Shown in pieces: positions 1,975 through 12,613 of a stretch of 64,000 nt of DNA (its first letter is position 1; each line of letters starts with the position of its first letter). The DNA is from Candidatus Wolframiiraptor gerlachensis (GTDB lineage: Archaea > Thermoproteota > Nitrososphaeria_A > Caldarchaeales > Wolframiiraptoraceae). Under the pieces are notes generated by a model. The model saw only the letters and a list, made by a program, of their open reading frames with translations, did not search any database and was not told the origin of the DNA. The DNA is taken from the NCBI GenBank assembly GCA_021323375.2, contig JAJPCT020000023.1, positions 1-64,000 on the forward strand. Direction: 5' to 3'. A program made the position numbers and the translations under genes.

Positions 1975-2654
1975 CCGACCACACCTCAGAATCGAGATAT
2001 CCTAGGTCATGGGGGGCGAGGTCAGGTGTGGGGAGGACGTTCAGAGGATCCTGAGGAGCCCTCTCTAAGGGGTTCGCTGAATCCGCCGAGCCCGAGGGGG
2101 CGAGAGTATGGATGGAGGGAAAAACATGGTTGGTCTAGACCGCTGGAATAAATCCCTTCCCGGCCATTCACATCACCTCGGCCACCGCCAGCAGTAGCGG
2201 CAACAACAGCAATAGCACAATAGCACAATCCACCACAGCAGCGGGTCAACCGGCCTCGGCAACCCCACCCCCTCAAACGCCGCCTCTTCCTCCCTGGGGG
2301 GCTCTGACCTCAGGAGGAGCAAGAAGCCTTTCAGGAGGAGTAGCAAAAACAACGTATGCTGGCCGGCGGGCAGTAAAAGCCGGAGAGCCGGTGGCAGTGA
2401 GACACTACTCGCCACGGGCCCTCCCCGTGGTGGTTAGGGGCAAAGGCCTGCTGGCCGGCTACGATGGCCTGCCGGCCAGCCCCACCCCCCTTTAACCCCA
2501 TTTTTCTCCACGCGAGCCTCCGCTATTAAAACTCCCTTAACTTTAACAAGCCTCTAGCGTCGAGATTCAAGCTATAGCTTACTCAGCCTCTCATAACTGT
2601 TAAGAGTGAAGGTTTTACGGGAAGCCTTTGCCCCAGAAGCCCTGACCACACCTA
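1975..2654. other. Long non-coding stretch between leuB and the small gene pair
   Basis: 680 bases with no convincing gene. About 2000-2340 is low-complexity and GC-rich (runs of GAG, GGG and CAG/CAA), and its open frames translate to poly-Leu or poly-Cys nonsense. 2353-2490 carries structured RNA copy A, followed by C-runs and a T5 at 2501-2505. 2510-2654 is the untranslated region downstream of leuB and shows nothing I can name. Confidence 0.6.
2358..2480 (+). ncRNA. Structured RNA of unknown class, copy A
   Basis: 123-base element with a diverged sister at 12433-12551. The ends pair as GCTGGCCGGC (2358-2367) with GCCGGCCAGC (2471-2480), extendable by four pairs. Inside are the invariant TAAAAGCCGGAGA (2374-2386), a hairpin GTGGC/GCCAC (2391-2395/2411-2415) with inner AGTG/CACT, and a 7-pair hairpin CCACGGG/CCCGTGG (2412-2418/2424-2430). 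The last two share bases 2412-2415 and so exclude each other. GGCTA/TGGCC (2457-2461/2465-2469) is a further small hairpin. GCTGGCCGGC recurs at 2450-2459, so the 3' end has an alternative local partner. G-U pairs favour the plus strand. T5 at 2501-2505 could end transcription. Not tRNA, 5S, SRP or RNase P by motif. Confidence 0.6.
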
Positions 2655-3686
2655 TTAGGCCCGCCTGATCTCCTCCATCATGCCCGCTATTCTCGCTCCA
2701 AGCTCGATAGTCTTGGCCCTGCCCCCGAGATCCGGCGTCAGCACCTTCCCCTCCTCAAGGGTCCTCACAACAGCCTCGTTCACCAGCTTGGAGGCCTCGA
2801 GGCATCTCGCATCACTATATCTCGCCGCGAGCCATTCGAGCATCATCGCGGCCGAGAGTATCATGGAGATCGGATTCGCTATCCCCTTACCAGCTATATC
2901 CGGGGCGCATCCATGGACGGGCTCGAAGATCGCGTATTCATCACCTATGTTTGCGGCTGGCGCTAGGCCAAGGCCGCCTACAACCTGAGCCGACTCATCC
3001 GACAGTATATCCCCAAACACGTTTGTAGTGACTATTACGTCGAATTGCTCGGGCCTTCTTATAAGATCCATCGCCGCGGCATCAACATACATCTCGGAGT
3101 AGGCTACGTCCGGGTAATCCTTGGAAACCTCTCTACACGTCCTAGCGAACAAGCCACATGTAATTCTCATGACATTCGCCTTATGAACCGCTACAACCCT
3201 CCTTCTCCTCCGCCGCGCTAACTCAAACGCGTATCGCGCTACCCGCTCGCACCCCCTCCTAGTTATCAGCCTGATTCCTATCGCGACGCCGTCAAACTCC
3301 CACTCATATCCCTTGTAGAGATCCTCGGTGTTCTCGCGGACTATGACTAGGTCTATGTTGGGCTTGAGGGCCGGGACGTTGGGAAGAGATCTCGCGGGTC
3401 TTACATTCGCGTAGAGGTCGAACATCTGTCTAAGCCTCACTATCACATCAGCAGCCGTCTCGCCGACAGGCCCCTTCAAGCACGCATGAGAGTCTTTTAG
3501 GATTCTTATAGTCTCGTCTGGGAGAGGCGTCCCCGTCTTCTTCATGCACCCGTCTCCAGCCTCTGCATCCACCACCTCCAACTCTAGGCCGAGGAGCTCC
3601 TCAAGCTTGGAGAGGACTAGAAGTGTTGCTTCAGCCTGCTCCGGGCCTATTCCATCACCACGTATCAGGGCTATCCGGTATCTCAT
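2655..3686 (-). CDS. leuB: 3-Isopropylmalate dehydrogenase
   Basis: Oxidative decarboxylation of 3-isopropylmalate in leucine synthesis, cytoplasmic. 343 residues, normal for the archaeal short form. The substrate loop reads AADVIVRLRQMFDLYANVRP (about 78-97), closely resembling the sulfolobal IPMDH type. VRENTEDLY (116-124), HKANVMR (168-174, catalytic lysine), NVFGDILSDESA (222-233, metal aspartates) and FEPVHGCAPDIAGK (254-267, NAD site) are all present. Last gene of ilvC-leuC-leuD-leuB, 12 bases after leuD. The genomic context supports isopropylmalate rather than isocitrate. A second family member lies at 31763-32800. Confidence 0.92.
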   Translation of the reverse strand: MRYRIALIRGDGIGPEQAEATLLVLSKLEELLGLELEVVDAEAGDGCMKKTGTPLPDETIRILKDSHACLKGPVGETAADVIVRLRQMFDLYANVRPARSLPNVPALKPNIDLVIVRENTEDLYKGYEWEFDGVAIGIRLITRRGCERVARYAFELARRRRRRVVAVHKANVMRITCGLFARTCREVSKDYPDVAYSEMYVDAAAMDLIRRPEQFDVIVTTNVFGDILSDESAQVVGGLGLAPAANIGDEYAIFEPVHGCAPDIAGKGIANPISMILSAAMMLEWLAARYSDARCLEASKLVNEAVVRTLEEGKVLTPDLGGRAKTIELGARIAGMMEEIRRA

Positions 3687-3698
3687 GGCAGGCCACCG

Positions 3699-4193
3699 CT
3701 ACTCAAGCCCCAGCTTCTTTCTAACATATCTTGTGAGGCCGCCGGCGCTTATTATCTCAATGGCAAGGGGTGGGAGGGGCTTTGCCTGAACCCTGATCCC
3801 CCTCGTCTTATTCTCTATGACGCCGCTGAGTAGATCTACTGAGAGGAAATCTCCCTCGCTCACCTTATCCCTCAGGCTCGCCTCGAGTATCGGGAGACCG
3901 ATGTTTATCGCGTTTCTATAGAAGATCCTCGCAAATGACTCTGCTATAACACATTTAGTGTTTGCGTACTTCAGCGCTACAGGGGCCTCCTCCCTGCTGG
4001 AGCCGCATCCAAAGTTTCTGCCCGCAACTATTATTACGCCCTCCCTAGCCTTTTCTGGGAAGCTCGGGTCCAGGCCCTCCATCGCGTGCTTCGCCAACTC
4101 TGAGGGCTCCTGCAGGACAAGATATCTCCCGGGGATAATCACATCGGTGTCGATATTGTCTCCATACACGACCGCCCTGCCCTCAATCCTCAT
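3699..4193 (-). CDS. leuD: 3-Isopropylmalate dehydratase small subunit
   Basis: Small swivelling subunit of the LeuC-LeuD isomerase, which converts 2- to 3-isopropylmalate. 164 residues, the compact archaeal form. GDNIDTDVIIPGRYL (11-25) and the substrate loop FGCGSSREEAP (61-71) are intact. It starts 2 bases after leuC ends and is followed 12 bases on by leuB, so the three are co-transcribed. The residues just after NIDTDVI that separate isopropylmalate from homoaconitate specificity cannot be called with certainty by eye; the neighbours favour leucine. Confidence 0.92.
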   Translation of the reverse strand: MRIEGRAVVYGDNIDTDVIIPGRYLVLQEPSELAKHAMEGLDPSFPEKAREGVIIVAGRNFGCGSSREEAPVALKYANTKCVIAESFARIFYRNAINIGLPILEASLRDKVSEGDFLSVDLLSGVIENKTRGIRVQAKPLPPLAIEIISAGGLTRYVRKKLGLE

Positions 4194-4195
4194 CC

Positions 4196-5452
4196 CTAAT
4201 CCACCTCCCTCGGGTCCGTTATCTTGCCCTTTATAGCTGACGCCGCGACCGTTGCCGGCGACGCGAGATATACCTTCGACTTGGGGCTACCCATTCTCCC
4301 GACGAAGTTCCTGTTAGCGGAGCTCACGCAGACCTCGTCATCAGCCAAGACTCCCCTGCTGATCCCGATGCATGGGCCGCATCCGGGGCCGCATATTATC
4401 GCCCCAGCCTTGATGAATATCTCGATCAACCCCTCCTTCAGGGCTTGATCATAGACCTCCTGAGATCCTGGGATTATCACGAGCCTCACGCCCTCCTTCA
4501 CCCTCCTCCCCTTCAGGATCTCGGCGGCGGCCCTGAGATCATCAAGCCTCCCATTAGTGCATGTCCCTATGAAGCCCTGCTGTATCTCTATGTCACCGAC
4601 CTCGCTAACGGGCTTCACATTATCGACTGATGGCGGGATCGCGACCTGGGGCTCCAGCCGCGATACATCTATCTCGTAGACCTTGGCGAACTCGGCATCA
4701 TCATCGCTCCTGATCGGATTTATGGGCTCCCCAGCCCTCTCCCTCACATATTTTATCGTCTTCTCATCGGGCTCGATTATCCCGGCCTTCGCGCCAGCCT
4801 CTATGCTCATGTTGCAGATCGTCGCCCTGCCATCTATTCCGAGATCTCTTATCGTCTGCCCGGAGAAGAGCATGGCCTTATAGTTCGCGCCCTCGGCCCC
4901 GATCATCCCAATTATATGGAGTATAAGGTCCTTCGCATAGACCCGCTTCTGGAGCTTGCCATTCACCTCGAATTTCAGGGTCTCTGGAACCCTAAGCCAT
5001 ATCGAGCCGGTTGCGAGGACCGCGGCCATATCCGTCGCACCTATACCAGTGGCGAAAGCCCCGAGAGCACCATATGTCACCGTATGCGAGTCTGCTCCAA
5101 CTATAAGCTCCCCCGGCTTGACATGGCCCTTCTCAAGCATCACGACATGGCAGACCCCTCCACGCCCTATATCATAGAAGTATCTTATCCCTTGCTCCCT
5201 GACGAAGTTCCTCACCTTCTTCTGAAGCTCGGCGGCCTTTATCGTGGAGGGCGGGACATCATGATCGAATACGACGATTATTCTCTCGGGATCCCAGACC
5301 CTCTTGACGCCGATCTCCCTGAACGAGTCTATCACCCTCGGCCCGGTCAGGTCATGCATCATTGCCTTATCCACCTTGGCATCAACGATCTGGCCCGGTG
5401 AAACCTCCTTCTCACCAGAAGCCCTCGCCAAGATCTTCTCGACAATATTCAA
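4196..5452 (-). CDS. leuC: 3-Isopropylmalate dehydratase large subunit
   Basis: Aconitase-superfamily subunit carrying the 4Fe-4S cluster. Counting from an upstream GTG at 5482, the cluster cysteines are C308 in FIGTCTNGR and C368/C371 in GPGCGPCIG. GADSHTVTYGALGAFATGIG (129-148) and SSANRNFVGRMG (387-398) are also present. I prefer the TTG at 5450-5452 as start (MNIVEKIL, matching the family N-terminus MTIVEKI); the GTG would add ten atypical basic residues. Followed after 2 bases by leuD; preceded by ilvC with a 36- to 66-base gap depending on start. Confidence 0.92.
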   Translation of the reverse strand: MNIVEKILARASGEKEVSPGQIVDAKVDKAMMHDLTGPRVIDSFREIGVKRVWDPERIIVVFDHDVPPSTIKAAELQKKVRNFVREQGIRYFYDIGRGGVCHVVMLEKGHVKPGELIVGADSHTVTYGALGAFATGIGATDMAAVLATGSIWLRVPETLKFEVNGKLQKRVYAKDLILHIIGMIGAEGANYKAMLFSGQTIRDLGIDGRATICNMSIEAGAKAGIIEPDEKTIKYVRERAGEPINPIRSDDDAEFAKVYEIDVSRLEPQVAIPPSVDNVKPVSEVGDIEIQQGFIGTCTNGRLDDLRAAAEILKGRRVKEGVRLVIIPGSQEVYDQALKEGLIEIFIKAGAIICGPGCGPCIGISRGVLADDEVCVSSANRNFVGRMGSPKSKVYLASPATVAASAIKGKITDPREVD

Positions 5453-5518
5453 TCCCTCAATCCCCCGCCTTCCGACCCTCACACGATAATGGTGTTATTT
5501 CTAGTTATTTCTTTCTAG

Positions 5519-6505
5519 TTATCTCTCTAGGCCCGCCATTCTCCTAAGCCTTCTCCCCACAACCTCAAGCGGGTGGTTCTCCACCTGCCTCATGAGTTCC
5601 TCGAGAGTCTTTCTGCCGCTTTCATACTCCTTAATCCACTCCCTAGCGAAGCTCCCATCCTTGACGCGCCTTGCCGCCTCCCTCATATTCTCCTTTACAT
5701 GCTCGTCGATTATCTTCGGGCCGACGGTTAGCCCCCCATACTTCGCCGTATCCGAGACAGCCTTCAGCATCCCAATTAAGCCCCCGCGGTATATCAAGTC
5801 TATGATGAGCTTGGCCTCGTTACACGCCTCGAAGTATGCTAGCTCTGGTGGATAGCCCTCCTCGACTAAGACCTCGAAGCCCTTCTTTATCAGCTCCATC
5901 AACCCTCCGACCAAGACTGTCTGCTCCCCTATCAGATCGCTCTCCGCCTCATCCTTGAATGTGGTCTCGAGGACGCCGACCCTCGTCGCCCCTATCCCCT
6001 TAGCTATCGCGAGAGCCCTCTGCTTAGCCCTCCCCGTATAGTCCTGCTCGACCGCGATTAGCGCTGGGACGCCGCTACCCCTGAGGTAATTCTCCCTGAC
6101 TATTGGGCCGGGCCCCTTCGGCGCCACCATTATCACATCAATATATGGTGGTGGAATAACCTGCTTATAATGCACGCTAAAGCCGTGGGAGAAGCAGAGG
6201 GCCTTTCCTTCCGAGAGATTAGCCCGGATGTATTTCTCGTATATCTCCTTGTGGGCCATATCCGGGATGAGCATGTAGATTATGGTGCCTCTTCTCGCTG
6301 CCTCATCTATGTCATAGACCTCGAAGCCCTCCTCCCTCGCGAGCTTCTCAGACCTCCCGGGCCTGCACCCAATTATCACCCTCAAGCCCGAGTCCCTTAG
6401 ATTTAGTGCCTGATTCCTCCCCTGGCTCCCATAGCCTATCACTGCTATAACCTCGTCCTTTAGAATTGAGAGGTCGGCGTCCTCATCGAGATATACTCGA
6501 GTCAT
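5519..6505 (-). CDS. ilvC: Ketol-acid reductoisomerase (class I)
   Basis: Second step of valine, isoleucine and leucine synthesis: Mg-dependent alkyl migration and NAD(P)H reduction of acetolactate or acetohydroxybutyrate. 328 residues, the short class I form. Nucleotide motif GYGSQG (24-29); cofactor loop CRPGRSE (47-53), whose arginine and serine are compatible with NADPH; metal ligands D190 and E194 in DLIGEQT. C-terminal knotted domain complete. First gene of the ilvC-leuCDB operon. The upstream 47 bases to the DUF106 gene contain AT-rich sequence (aataatattttc) on the 5' side that could hold its TATA box. Confidence 0.95.
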
Positions 6506-6552
6506 GGGTTCTGGACTGTGGAAGGCGACATAATAATATTTTCACCAAGAAA

Positions 6553-7059
6553 TCAGCCCTTTTTCTGGCTCTGGGGGGTCTGTCCCAGGCTGACTTGGAA
6601 CAGCTTGTTTATCGGGAAGTTTATGGCGAAGAGGCATAAAACATACCACATAAGATAATCCAGCTTGTTGCCGACGAAGGGGAGCATCATGTCGCCTGGC
6701 AGCGTCGCCACTACCTCTAGCCCGCCATATAATGGATTCAACACACCCAAGAAGACTATGTAGAATATCGCTATGCTTGCTATGAGGAGTATGATGTTCT
6801 TCTTCCCCACCTCGGCGTCTATCTTCCGATAATAGTCCCGTTTTCGCATCAGCTTCTGGAGCATCTTCTTGTCGCCCTTCCTCTGCGCCTCAAGCAGCAT
6901 TCTTCTGAATTTCTGGGACTCGGCCATCTTAGCCATATCCTCGGGCGTTAAGATCCTCCTCCTGAGAATGCTCGTCGTCAAGCTCACCGCGGCCGATATG
7001 AGGAATATCTCAAGCATAGGCTGCACCATGATTACCTCGATCACATTAGGGCTCTTCAA
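6553..7059 (-). CDS. DUF106 / EMC3-like membrane insertase of the Oxa1 superfamily
   Basis: 168-residue membrane protein with three hydrophobic segments (about 12-31, 86-105, 135-155). A charged, probably coiled-coil region (40-80; RRMLLEAQRKGDKKMLQKLM) lies between the first two. This is the layout of archaeal DUF106 proteins, homologous to eukaryotic EMC3 and to Oxa1/YidC insertases. It sits 31 bases downstream of secY, as in many archaea, consistent with a role beside the Sec channel in inserting membrane proteins. The adenylate kinase gene that often follows secY in archaea is absent here. Confidence 0.88.
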   Translation of the reverse strand: MKSPNVIEVIMVQPMLEIFLISAAVSLTTSILRRRILTPEDMAKMAESQKFRRMLLEAQRKGDKKMLQKLMRKRDYYRKIDAEVGKKNIILLIASIAIFYIVFLGVLNPLYGGLEVVATLPGDMMLPFVGNKLDYLMWYVLCLFAINFPINKLFQVSLGQTPQSQKKG

Positions 7060-7090
7060 GACAATATATTCTTTCCCGAGACCTCGGCAG

Positions 7091-8506
7091 CTATTCCCCG
7101 AGCAGCCTTCTGAAGACCGGGCTCATCTCCTCAAGCCTCTCCCTCAATAACAGCTCGTAGTATTGCATGAGGATCCCTGTCATTAGTAGTATTCCTATTC
7201 CCCCACCGTAGACGTTGAAGTAGTCTCCGAGGACCGCGATGAGGCCTACTATGATTGCGCTGAGGATCGTCAGCGTCCGGATATATCTCTCGAGCATTCG
7301 GGCGATCACGGCGGGCGCCCTCCTGAATCCCGGGACCTGCATTCCCGCCTTCACGAGCTGGTCGGCGATCCGATCTGGAGATAATCCTCCAACCTCAACC
7401 CAGAACTTCGCGAAGAGGACGCAGAACCCGAGCATTATTAACGCGTATATTACTGCTCTTAGCGGGTCCGCCGCCGCACCCTCAATGCCTCCGGGAGAGG
7501 TTACATAGTATGCTAGGCCTCCAAGCGGGACTAGGCCATGGTCTGTCGCGTTAAACGACCCGATCAGGTTCAGTATCGGGTCCTGGTTCGCGGGGTTGAA
7601 CCTGCTCCAGATTATCGTGGAGAAGAAGTAGATGTTCGTGAAGATGACAGATGTGAAGATCACGGGAATGTTGGAGACATAGAGGAACTTTATCGGATAC
7701 CTGGCAACATATCCCGAGACGCGGGCATGCTGAATCGGCACCTCGATCCTAAGCGATTCCAGGTATATTATGAGAAGGAGTATTGCTATTGTTGATATGA
7801 GGCCCATTAGGCCCGGGAAATGCCCCCTATGGAAGAGGTCCCCTATCGAGCCGTGGCCGGCTGCTGCTTGGCCGAGCGCTAGGATTATCCCCTGATAATA
7901 GCCGTCCGGCAGCATTATGGGGGAGAAGAGGTTCGTGAATATCGTCTCTGCGACTCCAGCCGCTATGAAGAGGCTCACGCCACTCCCAAGGCCCCAACCC
8001 TTCTGTATCAGCTCATCCATGAAGACTATCAGCATCGTCGCGGCCACTAGCTGGATGAAGACTATTGCCTGGATTGGTGGTTCGAGGTGTCCAAGCATCC
8101 CGGATACGGTGTAGACAGCCGCCTCCACGATTATCACGGCGATCGTGAAGAGCTTGCTCAGGGCTGTGAAGGTTGTTCTATCCTCGTGCTTTGAGAGGTC
8201 GAGTCTTATTATCTGTGCTCCGACAAGGAGCTGGAGTATAAGCCCGGCCGTCACGATGGGGCCTATGCCGAGGGTTGTGAGCGTGCCGATCCTCTGGGCG
8301 AAGATTATGCTCATGATTAGGGGGCTCTGGCCCGCGAGCCCAGCCGCCTGGGGGACTCCATACAACATCGTATGGCCCATGAGAGTGTAGATTACGAGGA
8401 CTAGGGCTGTCCAGATGAGCCTCTCTCCTAGGCTCGGCCTCTTAATGGGCCTTTTGACCTCGGGGAGATATTTCGCGATGCTCTCGACCACTTGTCTTAG
8501 GCTCAA
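7091..8506 (-). CDS. secY: Protein translocase subunit SecY
   Basis: Pore-forming subunit of the Sec translocon (Sec61-alpha homologue). 471 residues with ten hydrophobic segments. The plug/TM2 region (VPQAAGLAGQSPLI), TM3 with LGIGPIVTAGLILQL, and the cytoplasmic loop EVPIQHARVSGYVARYPIKF after TM6 (basic, ribosome-docking) are all recognisable. The start overlaps the end of rpl15 by 4 bases, so the two are translationally coupled. Last but one gene of the ribosomal superoperon. Confidence 0.95.
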   Translation of the reverse strand: MSLRQVVESIAKYLPEVKRPIKRPSLGERLIWTALVLVIYTLMGHTMLYGVPQAAGLAGQSPLIMSIIFAQRIGTLTTLGIGPIVTAGLILQLLVGAQIIRLDLSKHEDRTTFTALSKLFTIAVIIVEAAVYTVSGMLGHLEPPIQAIVFIQLVAATMLIVFMDELIQKGWGLGSGVSLFIAAGVAETIFTNLFSPIMLPDGYYQGIILALGQAAAGHGSIGDLFHRGHFPGLMGLISTIAILLLIIYLESLRIEVPIQHARVSGYVARYPIKFLYVSNIPVIFTSVIFTNIYFFSTIIWSRFNPANQDPILNLIGSFNATDHGLVPLGGLAYYVTSPGGIEGAAADPLRAVIYALIMLGFCVLFAKFWVEVGGLSPDRIADQLVKAGMQVPGFRRAPAVIARMLERYIRTLTILSAIIVGLIAVLGDYFNVYGGGIGILLMTGILMQYYELLLRERLEEMSPVFRRLLGE

Positions 8507-8967
8507 GCGGCTACACCCTCAATCTCGCTGGGCTTGAGAAGCTTTCCACCAGCCTCTCTTACCGCTTTCTCGGCGCGCTCGGTCCAGCTATCCACGATGA
8601 CCACGAACCCTCTATCCAGCTTTCCCCTGCCAACAAGCTTCCCGACCCCGAGGGCGGAGAGATCAATCACCGGCATGCCATCCATGAGCTTAAGCTCACC
8701 CCTCCGCTCCAAGTTCTCCACGAGCGTCGAGAGCTGGATCAAGTTCATAGACCTGATCTCGCGCTTGTTCGGCCTATAGAAGCCGTGCTTCCCGAAGTAG
8801 TCCGGGTCATATCTGAGAACCCAAGTCCACTTATGCTTATGCATGCCAGCGTGGCCATGTCCGCCCCTAGAGCCAGATTTTCTATGCTGGCCTATTTGGC
8901 CCCAGCCACATGTCCTACTACCTCTACGCTTCCTGCTCTTCCGATGCCGCGTTCCCATGGACTTCAC
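8503..8967 (-). CDS. rpl15: Large ribosomal subunit protein L15 (uL15)
   Basis: Assembly protein of the large subunit core. The N-terminus has the expected basic Gly-rich tail (RHRKSRKRRGSRTCGWG, then HRKSGSRGGHGHAG) that threads into 23S rRNA, followed by the globular part ending VREAGGKLLKPSEI. 154 residues from a GTG start; an ATG at 8958 would give a 151-residue form whose N-terminus looks equally normal. A TATA-like element on this strand (9013-9020) in the gap after L30 suggests an internal promoter for rpl15-secY-DUF106. Confidence 0.93.
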   Translation of the reverse strand: MKSMGTRHRKSRKRRGSRTCGWGQIGQHRKSGSRGGHGHAGMHKHKWTWVLRYDPDYFGKHGFYRPNKREIRSMNLIQLSTLVENLERRGELKLMDGMPVIDLSALGVGKLVGRGKLDRGFVVIVDSWTERAEKAVREAGGKLLKPSEIEGVAA

Positions 8968-9012
8968 GCACCCCTTCAGTGAGCACTTTCCGGAGACAGC
9001 CAGCCTCCTGCC

Positions 9013-9020
9013 TTAATATA
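9013..9020 (-). promoter_or_regulatory. Probable internal promoter (TATA box) before rpl15
   Basis: The 65-base gap between rpl30 and rpl15 reads TATATTAA on the minus strand, flanked by GGAAAAGG upstream. Transcription starting about 25 bases downstream would give a leader of roughly 20-30 bases before the L15 start. Nearly all other joints in the operon are overlaps, so this gap is a plausible place for a second start. Confidence 0.45.
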
Positions 9021-9032
9021 CCTTTTCCAGCC

Positions 9033-9521
9033 CTATACCCCAGCCATTCTGACGAAGAGCTCGTTTATCTTCTCGCCGCGGTAGCCATACTCGCCGCCCA
9101 TGGAGAAGTGTTTCTTGATCGTCTTCTTGAATCCACCCTTTGGCGGGTGGAGCCTCGCGTAGGGCTTCACACCCTTCTCCTTTAGCGAGCTAAGGGTTAC
9201 CTCGGCGTTGTAAAGCTTCCTCGCCAAGTCTTCGAGGGACTCGAAGCCAAGCTTCCTCGCATACTCGTCATCCAGCGTTCCATCGCCCATAATCTCCACC
9301 CTCCTGAGGAATGTCTTGATCGTTTTGAGGTTCGGCTCACCCCAAGTTATCATGTGCTCGACCTTCCTCAGCATCCCCTCATAGCTCGGAGTTCTCGGGA
9401 CTATCGTTGCCCAGTTAGCCCTACTAAGATTCAGCATCTTGAGTGTGTCAAGGTGGTCCTTCCTCGCCTTGACGCTCCCCTTAATCCTTATCACGAGATA
9501 GCATTTGGCCTCCTCGGACAA
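9033..9521 (-). CDS. rpl30: Large ribosomal subunit protein L30 (uL30)
   Basis: 162 residues, the long archaeal/eukaryotic form. The opening strand CYLVIRIKGSVKARKDHLDTL and helix NLSRANWATIVPRTPSYEGML are diagnostic. The C-terminal extension (PPKGGFKKTIKKHFSMGGEYGYRG is split here as PPKGGFKKTIKKHF and MGGEYGYRG) matches archaeal L30. Six bases after rps5. Binds 23S and 5S rRNA regions on the large subunit. Confidence 0.94.
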   Translation of the reverse strand: MSEEAKCYLVIRIKGSVKARKDHLDTLKMLNLSRANWATIVPRTPSYEGMLRKVEHMITWGEPNLKTIKTFLRRVEIMGDGTLDDEYARKLGFESLEDLARKLYNAEVTLSSLKEKGVKPYARLHPPKGGFKKTIKKHFSMGGEYGYRGEKINELFVRMAGV

Positions 9522-9527
9522 GGCTCA

Positions 9528-10139
9528 TCACCACATGGTCGGGAGAACTATCTTGTTCGTGTTTCTAAGGGCCTCGATGACTGCTCCGGCGAATGACAGC
9601 GTTGTTCTAGTCTCGCCGAATGTTCGCGTCCAGACATCCTCGACCCCCGCGAGCTCGAGGACTATTCTCGCGGCCTCGCCGGCGACTATGCCCAAGCCCC
9701 TCGGCCCGGGTATCAGCTCGATCCTCACGCTCCCGCGCTTGCCCTCAACCTTCGTCAAGAGGCTGTGAGGCTGTCCACACGCGCACTCCCAACTCCCGCA
9801 ACCCCTCCTCACGGGGATGATATTCATCTTCGCGTTCTTCACGGCTTTCTCTATCGCAGAGACCACGTGAACAGCCTTACCAGTCCCCAGCCCGACATAT
9901 CCATCCCTGTTGCCCACGATCACTATAGCCCTGAACCTCGATCGCTCCCCAGCCGCCGTCTGCTTCTGGACAAGATTAATATCCAAGACCTCCTGCTCCA
10001 AGTTCGGCAGCAAGTAGTCCACGATCTCGGGCTCCGTGATCTTAAGGTTCTGCGCGAATAGCTCAGCTATCGAGGTTATCCTGCCCTCCTTAACCATCCT
10101 GCCAACTCTTGTTTTAGGAGACCATTCCTCCGCGCTCAT
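9528..10139 (-). CDS. rps5: Small ribosomal subunit protein S5 (uS5)
   Basis: 203 residues, with the archaeal N-terminal extension ([20 protein letters not shown]), the double-stranded-RNA-binding motif ([21 protein letters not shown], shown here by its core [14 protein letters not shown]) and the C-terminal domain ([20 protein letters not shown]). Acts in decoding accuracy near the mRNA entry. ATG start overlaps the L18 stop by 4 bases. Confidence 0.95.
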
Positions 10140-10711
10140 ACTCCACTCAACTCCTTTAGAATCCTATTCTTAACCTCCTCGAAATGCTTCTCCAAGTTCA
10201 TGTAAATGAACTCATCACTCTTTGAGAACTGGGTTGTCTGCAAGCCCGACTCACGAATCATCCTATAATACTCGGATATGTGTTTTCCAGAAATCCTATC
10301 CTCGTCGGGCAGTATCTCCTCCCCGAGGGGTATCTCGATCCCGGCATCCCTGAAGCCTAGCGCGGCCGCGAAGATCTTTGACCCCCTACTAGGAGTCTGT
10401 AGCCCTATATCCAAGATCGCCTTCTCGACCTTGTCCTTTACTAGGAGACCGGCTAGCAGGCCTGTCAAGTAGGCCGCGGGCGTATTCTTCAAGCTCGCCC
10501 TCCACCCATAATCCCTTAACTTCTTCGATGTTACAGTCAGGATGGTCTCATCGCCGCCGAGCTTCGATCTTATCACCTGGACGATTATCTGGTTGTTAGT
10601 TTTCCTGACGACGAGCCTTGGCAGGCCCGACTTTACGAGCTTCAGCCTCTTCCGGTAATCTGTGAGGCCGAGCCTCCTCCGCTTGGGAGGCATTCGCTTT
10701 AATAGGCTCAT
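10136..10711 (-). CDS. rpl18: Large ribosomal subunit protein L18 (uL18)
   Basis: 5S rRNA-binding protein of the central protuberance. 191 residues. [19 protein letters not shown] and [16 protein letters not shown] form the 5S-binding N-terminus, and [12 protein letters not shown] plus [20 protein letters not shown] are the conserved middle. The archaeal C-terminal extension is present. Overlaps rpl19e by 4 bases upstream and rps5 by 4 downstream. Confidence 0.95.
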
Positions 10712-11160
10712 AGTAGCGGCCTCCTGATCAGGTTATTCTGTGTAAGATACTCCATCATAGATGCAACGGACTTGAATGCGCCGGCCTTAACCATCATGTA
10801 GACCTTCCTATACGTTGTCCTCGTTATGAGGCCGCGATCTCTCAGCTCCTTCAGCTTCCTCCTCTGAGCTCTCACCCTAATCATCCACTGCTCCTTCCTC
10901 GAGAGCCTGCTATATTTTCCGCCTTCCTTGCTCCCGGGCCCCCTGCTCTTCTTGCGCTTTCTTGCTCTTACCCGCGCCCGGCTTATCCCCTTCTCCTGCT
11001 CCTTCCAGATAACGCCATCCTTTATCAGCCTCCTAATATCCTCACGGGTTATCGCCTCAGAGACCTCCTCAAGCTTCTCCGGATCAAGCTTCACCCTATG
11101 GATTCCACATTTCAAGAGGTCTGCTGCCAACCTCTTCTGAAGTGTGAGTTTAAAGCCCAT
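10708..11160 (-). CDS. rpl19e: Large ribosomal subunit protein L19e (eL19)
   Basis: Archaeal/eukaryote-specific protein. 150 residues. Starts LTLQKRLAADLLKCGIHRV, with the basic central stretch ISRARVRARKRKKSRGPGS and helix RRKLKELRDRGLITRTTYR. Its 5' end overlaps the 3' end of rpl32e by 11 bases. Co-transcribed with its neighbours. Confidence 0.95.
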   Translation of the reverse strand: MGFKLTLQKRLAADLLKCGIHRVKLDPEKLEEVSEAITREDIRRLIKDGVIWKEQEKGISRARVRARKRKKSRGPGSKEGGKYSRLSRKEQWMIRVRAQRRKLKELRDRGLITRTTYRKVYMMVKAGAFKSVASMMEYLTQNNLIRRPLL

Positions 11161-11608
11161 TTTCCTTCACCTCCTGTGAGAGCTCCTCTATCTCGGGCCT
11201 AACCACTTCCACCTCCTCAACCTCCTCCATTAGCCTCGGAGGGTTGAGTATCTTCAGCCCGAGCTTCCTTGCCTCCTCCACTATGAGCAGCCTCTTCCTC
11301 ATCCCGACGGAGCCGGCTATCCTAATCGCGTGGACTTCAGGGTTGAGGCCTTGGAGATCCTCGGGCCTATACACTAAGACCTCCTTATAGCCGCTGGGAT
11401 GCAGATCCCTGTAATCTTTCGGGGTCCTGTATCCGATCTTGACTAGTGGGGGCCATCCCTTAACTTGGAGCCTCATCTTGCTATCCTTCCCCTTCGGCCT
11501 CCTCCAGTTAGGCTTAATCCTCACATATCTCCAGCTCTCCTGCCTGACGAACTCCGGCCTCTTGAGCTTCAGCTCTTTAACCCATCTCGGGATCTTTATC
11601 GGGCTCAT
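11150..11608 (-). CDS. rpl32e: Large ribosomal subunit protein L32e (eL32)
   Basis: 152 residues. Conserved core KRPEFVRQESWRYVRIKPNW, WRRPKGKDSKMRLQ, GYRTPKDYRDLHPSG and the C-terminal Rossmann-like part (AIRIAGSVGMRKRLLIVEEA). The end has an acidic tail (EEVEEVEVVRPEIEE) typical of thermophilic archaea. The frame begins at the base next to the rpl6 stop. Confidence 0.95.
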   Translation of the reverse strand: MSPIKIPRWVKELKLKRPEFVRQESWRYVRIKPNWRRPKGKDSKMRLQVKGWPPLVKIGYRTPKDYRDLHPSGYKEVLVYRPEDLQGLNPEVHAIRIAGSVGMRKRLLIVEEARKLGLKILNPPRLMEEVEEVEVVRPEIEELSQEVKENGL

Positions 11609-12160
11609 CTACTCCATCCCCACCTTCTTCTCGTAAATGTATATTCCGTCGAGGAACTTTCTCGGATCCTTTCTCCTCACCTTCGTCGCCTGCTCTATGT
11701 TTGCCGCCGTCTGGCCGACCGCCTCCTTATCCACGCCCTTCACTATCACATCATCACCCCTTACTTCGACCCTCGTCCCCTCGCCAACAATCTTCGCTAT
11801 CCTTGGAGACCTCTCACCGATGAAGTTCTCTATGTAGACCGTATCTCCCTGAACCTTGACGGTTATGGGGAAGTGGGATGCGACGATCTTCATCTTGTAT
11901 GTGAAGCCTTGGGTAACGCCCACAATCATGTTCTCGATTATGCTCCTTATCGTCCCTATGAGTGCCTTGGCCCGCCTACCCCTTCCCACGAGCTTCACGA
12001 GAATCTTGTTCGAGGCGAGCTCAAGCTTCACATTAGCGTGAGAAAGATCCTTCACGACCTGGCCAAGCTTACCCTTCACCCTAATCCTGCTAGAACCCTC
12101 TATCTCGACCACAACGCCCTCCGGAACCTCTATCTCCTCAACATACTCCTGCAGGGGCAT
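11609..12160 (-). CDS. rpl6: Large ribosomal subunit protein L6 (uL6)
   Basis: Binds the base of the L7/L12 stalk. Two repeated L6 domains are visible: the first contains EIEVPEGVVVEIEGSSRIRV, the second GFTYKMKIVASHFPITVKV and NFIGERSPRIAKIVGEGTRV. I chose the ATG at 12160 (MPLQEYVEEIEVPEG) because it is preceded by a G-rich ribosome-binding stretch (ttgggggtc) and gives the usual 183 residues; a start at 12190 would add ten residues. Unusually, 0.45 kb of non-coding DNA separates it from rps8. Confidence 0.93.
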   Translation of the reverse strand: MPLQEYVEEIEVPEGVVVEIEGSSRIRVKGKLGQVVKDLSHANVKLELASNKILVKLVGRGRRAKALIGTIRSIIENMIVGVTQGFTYKMKIVASHFPITVKVQGDTVYIENFIGERSPRIAKIVGEGTRVEVRGDDVIVKGVDKEAVGQTAANIEQATKVRRKDPRKFLDGIYIYEKKVGME

Positions 12161-12613
12161 GACCCCCAATTCACCTGCCACGAGCCTCATCCTTTAACCC
12201 CGATCTTCCAGCGAATCTGATCCACCCGCCGCTATATTGCTATTTAAAAATTCCGGGCGCCGAAAAATCCCGCAAGAAGCTATGCTTAGAAGAGGCTGCA
12301 GCCCCAAACTTATGGCTCGAGATAGTCGGGGGATAATGAGAGGCTCTTCGATAGATTGAAAGAAATGCTAGGCCTAATACTGCGTAGACCTAATTAGGAA
12401 GTTTATCACCTAGTAGGGCACTTTTACGTACTGCTGGCCAGTGAGCGATAAAAGCCGGAGAACCTGTGGTAAGGATACGTTCCTGCCATGACCTCCTATG
12501 GTAGTTTCAATAGACTCCCGCCGGGCCAGCTACAATAGCTCGCCGGTCAGCCCACCACCCAACTTTCATTATCTACTGTATTGTTTGAAGCATAAACATA
12601 AAAATTGAGGAGG
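12161..12613. other. Non-coding block inserted between rps8 and rpl6
   Basis: About 450 bases without a gene in a place where archaeal operons normally have almost no gap. 12191-12360 shows no clear structure. 12374-12399 contains CCTAAT and ATTAGG, which could pair. TTTATC at 12402-12407 could be a plus-strand TATA box. 12433-12551 is structured RNA copy B. 12560-12613 is AT-rich. The L6 5' leader lies within 12161-12190 and must either be transcribed through this block or have its own promoter. Confidence 0.6.
12433..12551 (+). ncRNA. Structured RNA of unknown class, copy B
   Basis: 119-base sister of the element at 2358-2480. Shared: TAAAAGCCGGAGA (12449-12461), preceding acgta and the GCTGGCC start, and a CCCACC-type 3' flank. 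Ends pair as GCTGGCCAGTGAGC with GCTCGCCGGTCAGC (12433-12446/12538-12551), 13 of 14 positions including wobbles. Hairpin GTGGT/GCCAT (12466-12470/12485-12489) with inner AGGA/TCCT (12472-12475/12481-12484); competing hairpin CCATG/TATGG (12485-12490/12497-12501 region); AGCTA/TAGCT (12528-12532/12536-12540). Five G-U pairs on the plus strand would be A-C on the minus strand, so plus is the likely sense. TTTATC at 12402-12407 is placed about 26 bases before the element. Confidence 0.6.

What the first reader, a model, noticed from the sequence alone, without database searches (positions are those of the whole stretch)
2358..12551. Two diverged copies of an unrecognised structured RNA with compensatory base changes
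The elements at 2358-2480 and 12433-12551 share TAAAAGCCGGAGA exactly, the GCTGGCC start and the same helix order, yet differ in many helix positions in a paired way. Inner stem AGTG/CACT becomes AGGA/TCCT (two compensated pairs); CCACG/CGTGG becomes CCATG/TATGG (C-G to U-A); GGCTA/TGGCC becomes AGCTA/TAGCT; G2369-C2469 becomes A12444-T12540. Paired changes around an invariant single-stranded core are the classic sign of selection on RNA structure. It does not fit tRNA, 5S, SRP, RNase P, C/D or H/ACA motifs. Covariation is seen in the sequence; novelty is inference.
Basis: partly seen in the sequence, partly recalled or inferred. Interest (0 to 1): 0.85.

Follow-up and report, generated by a model that had tools for sequence, protein, structure and literature searches.

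The report
Guide RNA of archaeal jumping gene
The two structured RNAs are orphan copies of a guide RNA that normally sits right behind the gene of an unrecognised mobile element in hot-spring archaea; two short stretches of this RNA match the two strands of the DNA site where a copy has inserted, and those stretches change from copy to copy while the rest of the element hardly changes.

Summary
The structured RNA is real, but it is neither stand-alone nor only two copies. About 20 related elements lie in this 1.28-Mb genome. In full copies the RNA directly follows a ~300-aa gene and its outer stem overlaps the gene's 3' end; the 'invariant core' TAAAAGC starts at the stop codon. The protein misses Pfam/NCBIfam cut-offs, but a confident AlphaFold model matches only TIGR-Tas and IS110 structures: a RuvC-Nop protein. 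The IS110 catalytic serine is missing. The RNA is one long hairpin with covarying stems. Its inner loop holds two variable segments matching the two sides of the copy's own insertion site: both sides for C1_51, C4_8, L128, L133; one side for several others; window copy 2358 has an 11-nt match in its leuB flank. Empty sites in sister genomes and 4-6-bp direct repeats show true insertion. Guides fit in either orientation and turn over fast (L131/L132: 3.0% divergence elsewhere, 7 of 12 guide bases). Best reading: RNA-guided staggered cleavage used for insertion, a new variant between TIGR-Tas and IS110. The window copies are solo copies without the protein gene.

The parts
2358..2480 (+). Solo guide-RNA element 1, outer stem to outer stem
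   Evidence: 84% identical to C16:117098
2358..2370 (+). P1 5' arm (pairs 2468-2480); in full copies it also encodes the C-terminal LAGG of the protein
2374..2380 (+).
2342..2376 (+). Remnant of the tnp 3' end (QKQRMLAGGQ*, after an in-frame TAG)
   Evidence: sequence compared with L012 protein ...WQQRQHMLVGGQ*
2378..2391 (+). P2 5' arm (pairs 2451-2460)
2392..2411 (+). 5' guide segment with flanking box TGG
   Evidence: nearly the same in C16:117098
2412..2430 (+). P3 apical hairpin
2431..2450 (+). 3' guide segment (TGG TTAGGGGCAAAGG CCTG)
   Evidence: its reverse complement matches 11 nt of the right flank
2461..2467 (+). 3' strand of the conserved outer internal loop (ACGATGG; opposite strand CAGTAAA), possible donor-recognition loop
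   Evidence: function inferred
2468..2480 (+). P1 3' arm
2624..2634 (+). GCCTTTGCCCC, reverse complement of the 3' guide, in the leuB-side flank (reverse-orientation target half)
   Evidence: 0 of 342 swapped guides reach 11 nt; the stretch alignable by BLAST to sister genomes starts at 2652
12433..12551 (+). Solo guide-RNA element 2, strongly diverged, between rpl6 and rps8
   Evidence: between the aligned flanking blocks G007 has 14 bp and G005 60 bp, without the element
12433..12445 (+). P1 5' arm (pairs 12539-12551)
12467..12485 (+). 5' guide segment
12486..12501 (+). P3 apical hairpin CCATG..TATGG
12502..12520 (+). 3' guide segment
12539..12551 (+). P1 3' arm

Best explanation
The two loci are solo copies of the guide RNA of an unrecognised mobile element of Wolframiiraptoraceae and related archaea. 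A full element carries a small helical ORF (ORF-A), a ~290-300-aa RuvC-Nop protein and, from its stop codon onward, a ~120-nt hairpin RNA. Shown here: the RNA is conserved and covaries; in several copies its inner loop holds two guides, one matching each strand of the copy's own insertion site; copies are insertions with empty sites in relatives; guides turn over far faster than the rest. Inferred: the protein binds the RNA as a dimer through its Nop domain, the two guides pair with opposite target strands, the two RuvC domains make a staggered break a few bases apart, and the element is inserted in either orientation, leaving a 4-6-bp direct repeat. Each copy's guide then recognises empty copies of its own site, which would favour homing. 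How the element's DNA reaches the break and how guides change are unknown. The window copies lost the protein gene and could act only in trans, or are relics.
For: About 20 copies in the genome with intact and decayed genes; homologues in 17 of 61 genomes searched and in Ca. Geocrenenecus, Nitrososphaerales KUA_Bin06 and Ca. Wolframiiraptor. RNA follows the stop codon in own and related copies. Foldseek of the AF2 model (pLDDT 87, pTM 0.85): TasR 3e-7, ISCro4 2e-6, IS621 8e-6; only TIGR-Tas and IS110 structures below E 0.1. Sub-threshold IS110 hits in 6 of 17 homologues, best 4.9e-5; hhalign puts YVD, YIDA and KSDEVDA on the DEDD motifs, E 0.004. Covariation 28 versus 11.3 +- 2.9, 0/500. Empty sites. 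Guide matches: joint guide-plus-repeat score 22.3 (C1_51) and 19.0 (C4_8) against a null with mean 10.9, sd 1.4, max 14.9; in G024, 6 of 7 copies have a perfect 9-nt match in a near flank, L133 on both sides, L128 9/9 plus 8/9, and L132 and L134 in reverse orientation. Guide turnover L131/L132: 7/12 versus 39/1285. Window copy 2358: 11 nt, 0/342 controls.
Against: Both guides match both flanks in only four copies; 12 of 19 own-genome copies, including 12433, show no clear match. No expression, binding or cleavage data. AF2 used 7 sequences, and TM-scores to IS621/TasR are only 0.38-0.49. Guide borders were set by eye before testing, and flank windows were widened once. No donor mechanism: element ends are poorly conserved and many copies are 5'-truncated. 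Searches for intact targets of the two window guides in 22 family genomes found none for 2358 and one hit for 12433 that is no more frequent than the reversed-pattern control.
Confidence: 0.82

Rival explanations
1. A divergent but mechanistically ordinary IS110/IS1111 element: the RNA is a bridge/seekRNA with target and donor loops, and insertion is conservative recombination at a short core.
For: RNA location downstream of tnp and guide order (5' strand pairs top, 3' strand pairs bottom) are as reported for IS1111 seekRNAs (PMC11187229); fold match to IS621/ISCro4; the conserved outer internal loop could be the donor loop.
Against: The catalytic Ser-Gly of the Tnp domain is not conserved (A2, A3 versus A7); direct repeats differ between sites (GAGCTT, GGTTT, ATGATC), so there is no shared donor core; insertion in both orientations relative to the guides; ends not conserved.
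Confidence: 0.25
2. A retro-element: RNA with a fixed 3' end is copied at the guided nick (target-primed reverse transcription), giving 5' truncations and target-site duplications.
For: Many copies are 5'-truncated with the 3' RNA kept; solo copy C1_53 starts 2 nt before P3 and is flanked by a 6-bp repeat.
Against: No reverse transcriptase (PF00078) in the genome (genome 89% complete).
Confidence: 0.07
3. Stand-alone structured regulatory RNA, as first proposed.
For: Covariation; solo copies in intergenic regions.
Against: Intact copies lie at the 3' end of a mobile gene and several carry site-matching guides.
Confidence: 0.03
4. A palindromic DNA element (MITE) whose hairpin acts as DNA; RNA plays no role.
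For: The outer stem is a long inverted repeat; a solo copy inserted.
Against: Guides match the flanks and turn over between copies; the stems lie inside, not at, the insertion ends.
Confidence: 0.05

Closest known systems
TIGR-Tas, TasR (PMC12045711; PDB 9mty)
   Same: Best structural match; RuvC plus Nop protein; two short guides on opposite target strands, each flanked by the same pair of box-like motifs (e.g. CACGTC-guide-TAAACGG twice in L127); no serine recombinase residue; staggered cleavage would explain short direct repeats.
   Different: No tandem array: one RNA per gene, directly behind it; a multicopy mobile element with insertion sites; repeats of 4-6 bp against the 8-nt overhangs reported for TasR.
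IS110/IS1111 elements with bridge RNA / seekRNA (PMC11208160, PMC11208158, PMC11187229; PDB 8wt6, 9t56)
   Same: Mobile; RuvC with a DEDD-like motif, coiled coil and C-terminal domain; ncRNA next to the gene (3' as in IS1111); internal-loop guides to both target strands.
   Different: Far below family cut-offs; Glu of DEDD is Asp; Ser-Gly replaced, with a Tyr conserved nearby; direct repeats; both orientations; guides replaced between close copies; one coaxial hairpin.
Box C/D sRNP (Nop5)
   Same: Nop-domain fold superfamily; boxed dual guides in the wider superfamily.
   Different: No canonical C/D boxes recognised; matches DNA insertion sites; mobile element.

Membership tests
IS110/IS1111 | Match to DEDD_Tnp_IS110 / transpos_IS110 above curated cut-off | tested here: not met
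   12 bits vs 29 and 14.7 vs 140 for own-genome copies; whole-set best E 4.9e-5
IS110/IS1111 | RuvC, coiled coil and Tnp/Nop fold | tested here: met
   AF2 plus Foldseek
IS110/IS1111 | DEDD catalytic tetrad | tested here: inconclusive
   D-D-D-D: the Glu position is Asp; third Asp lost in deep branches
IS110/IS1111 | Catalytic serine (Ser241-Gly242 of IS621) | tested here: not met
   No conserved Ser in TPxKNxGRYNHRLR; this loop was aligned by motif, not by profile
IS110/IS1111 | Adjacent ncRNA with target-binding loop | tested here: met
IS110/IS1111 | Donor-binding loop matching joined element ends | tested here: inconclusive
   Outer loop conserved but no match to the ends was seen
IS110/IS1111 | Insertion at a fixed core with set orientation, no target duplication | tested here: not met
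   Variable 4-6-bp repeats and two orientations
TIGR-Tas | Nop-domain protein with RuvC (TasR type) | tested here: met
   Foldseek rank 1
TIGR-Tas | Tandem array of dual-guide units next to the gene | tested here: not met
   Single RNA unit behind each gene
TIGR-Tas | Two guides, one per target strand, in boxed units | tested here: met
TIGR-Tas | 8-nt 3' overhang cleavage | not testable with these tools
   needs biochemistry
MITE | Non-autonomous insertion flanked by direct repeats | tested here: met
   C1_53: 170-bp insertion, repeat ATGATC, empty in G005; not shown for the two window copies
Known Rfam family | Score above gathering threshold | tested here: not met

The most novel reading that the evidence does not exclude
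A self-homing mobile element that rewrites its own dual guide at each insertion so that the RNA recognises the site it now occupies (guide capture from the target, or guide diversification before insertion), using an RNA-guided RuvC-Nop nuclease that inserts DNA without the IS110 serine.
Probability: 0.35. Interest if true: 0.95.

Novelty: new variant of a known kind. Interest (0 to 1): 0.86.

Why it matters
TIGR-Tas, IS110 and box C/D systems have been proposed to share an ancestor, but a mobile TasR-like form with a single bridge-like RNA was not among the forms described in the papers read here. It would show how RNA-guided cleavage and RNA-guided insertion connect, and it comes with built-in data: a copy can carry both a guide and the site that guide chose. 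If guides are rewritten upon insertion, it would be a natural reprogrammable inserter. It also bears on genome rearrangement in these archaea (leuA and leuB are split in this genome, each now next to an element copy).

Tried and rejected
phmmer/hmmsearch against PDB sequences: no relevant hit. Pfam/PHROGs for ORF-A: nothing. Genome contigs with the 17-member alignment failed; a narrower one worked. RT search negative. Wolframiiraptor copy L077: no guide match in its 8.8-kb locus. Intact-target patterns for the window guides: none for 2358; one hit for 12433 in G019, no more frequent than the reversed-pattern control. The first single-guide flank test was only modestly enriched (5-6 of 20 in the top 5%); the joint test and the G024 copies were needed. 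MAFFT misaligns part of P2 between classes, so only 21 safely aligned pairs were counted. A 10-nt match of C7_3 to a tRNA 5' end was kept as a lead only.

Full report
What was checked. Each folds better than dinucleotide shuffles. Rfam has no match for the window at gathering thresholds, and only chance-level ones when relaxed.

More than two copies, and a gene. A DNA search of the own genome returned 21 pieces belonging to many elements. The conserved TAAAAGC proved to begin with the stop codon of an open frame: in full copies the RNA follows a 290-300-aa gene ending ...WQQRQHMLVGGQ* (L012) or ...TVKPLAGG* (L011), and the P1 5' arm is coding. In relatives the frame ends earlier (TGA before GCAGTAAAAGC), yet the RNA motif stays, so it is conserved as RNA, not as a stop codon. 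A protein search found 30 pieces of the gene in the own genome and matches in 17 of 61 genomes of a relatives set that includes the own genome. Named carriers are Ca. Geocrenenecus arthurdayi, a Nitrososphaerales bin and Ca. Wolframiiraptor sinensis. A small helical ORF (ORF-A) recurs just upstream.

What the protein is. Family cut-offs are missed, with recurrent weak IS110 hits. AlphaFold2 on seven locus proteins gave pLDDT 87 and pTM 0.85: RNase-H-like strands, a long coiled coil and a C-terminal helical domain. Foldseek against the PDB gave TasR (3e-7), ISCro4 (2e-6) and IS621 (8e-6), then TasH; TM-scores are 0.38-0.49, which is modest. Profile alignment with four real IS110 proteins sets YVD, YIDA and KSDEVDA on the DEDD positions. 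The IS110 Ser-Gly is absent; a nearby Tyr is present in most homologues. Whether that Tyr matters is unknown.

What the RNA is. One coaxial hairpin: P1 (13 bp), a conserved 7x7 internal loop, P2, a variable internal loop, apical P3. On 25 copies P1 and P2 covary strongly. In the variable loop each strand is a guide flanked by repeated motifs: GGTGG-guide-CCCGCC twice in class A, and TATGAC-guide-TTGACG / TATGAC-guide-AAGACG or CACGTC-guide-TAAACGG twice in the G024 relative. In five G024 copies most scaffold columns are invariant and changes concentrate in the guides and P3.

Guides match insertion sites. Empty sites in G001, G003 and G005 bound copy C1_51 at the same place; C4_8, C5 and solo C1_53 are also absent from one or more relatives. 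The C1_51 3' guide contains CTTAGCCGAG, its left target; the reverse complement of its 5' guide fits GCTTCTTTCTGACCC, its right target, with one wobble. C4_8 does the same with GGGAAATAGGTT and GTTTAAGCCT. Joint scores with a direct repeat are 22.3 and 19.0 against a swapped-guide null with mean 10.9, sd 1.4 and maximum 14.9. In G024, predicted 9-nt guides occur in the near flanks of 6 of 7 copies: L133 on both sides, L128 9/9 and 8/9 giving the site AAACTCTTATAGAAG, L130 and L131 on the left, and L132 and L134 in reverse orientation. Off-diagonal matches of 8 or more were few. Window copy 2358 shows an 11-nt reverse-orientation match at 2624-2634, and its partner C16:117098 a 10-nt one; none of 342 swaps reached either. 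Copy 12433 shows no match and is strongly diverged.

Mechanism. Direct repeats (GAGCTT, GGTTT, ATGATC, TCTT) differ between sites, and copies lie in either orientation relative to the guides. A fixed-core IS110 exchange does not predict this; a guided staggered break does, and TasR is reported to make 8-nt 3' overhangs (PMC12045711). That step, and how the donor arrives, are inference. 5'-truncated copies suggested reverse transcription, but no RT was found.

Guide turnover. L131 and L132 differ at 3.0% of 1285 positions but at 7 of 12 guide positions. Either guides change before insertion or they are taken from the site; the present data do not decide.

Rearrangement. leuA and leuB are adjacent in sister genomes; here leuA lies beside the element at C16:117098 and leuB beside the window element 2358, so recombination between two copies is the likely cause of the split.

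Limits. Guide edges were first drawn by eye, some flank windows were enlarged once, most own-genome copies lack a clear match, and nothing here is experimental.

Noticed in passing
window 2358-2652 and L009 (C16:114000-120500): leuA and leuB, adjacent in sister genomes, are split in this genome; each lies next to a copy of the element, suggesting element-mediated rearrangement.
   Followed up: partly
L012 4503-4787 (-), L017 4416-4805 (-), L062 32-604, L063 3-476: A small fast-evolving helical ORF (ORF-A) recurs upstream of the RuvC-Nop gene; no family match. In G031 and G027 a methyltransferase-like ORF lies between the two.
   Followed up: partly
L084 2362-2811; left flanks of C16_87, C25, C15, C7_29: A recurrent divergent Zn-finger-like ORF lies further upstream of several copies (weak phrog_2834 match); it may be part of the long form of the element.
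   Followed up: no
L011 5711-5880 and L020 3559-3829: Solo copies that start within a few bases of the P3 hairpin, i.e. truncated inside the RNA; L011's is flanked by the repeat ATGATC.
   Followed up: partly
L121 (G001:C7): A footprint-like AGAAGGCAT remains where the own genome has copy C4_8, as if the element had once been there and was lost.
   Followed up: no
L012, L014, L053, L109: Several copies lie close to tRNA-like sequences, and one guide matches a tRNA-like 5' end (C7_3: 10 nt).
   Followed up: no
L129 (G024:C1:1603000-1609000): Right flank contains TTATAGAAG, the right target of copy L128, although L129 carries a different RNA type.
   Followed up: no
window 2358 element and L009 element: The two copies share the 5' guide almost exactly but have unrelated 3' guides, each matching its own right flank.
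   Followed up: partly
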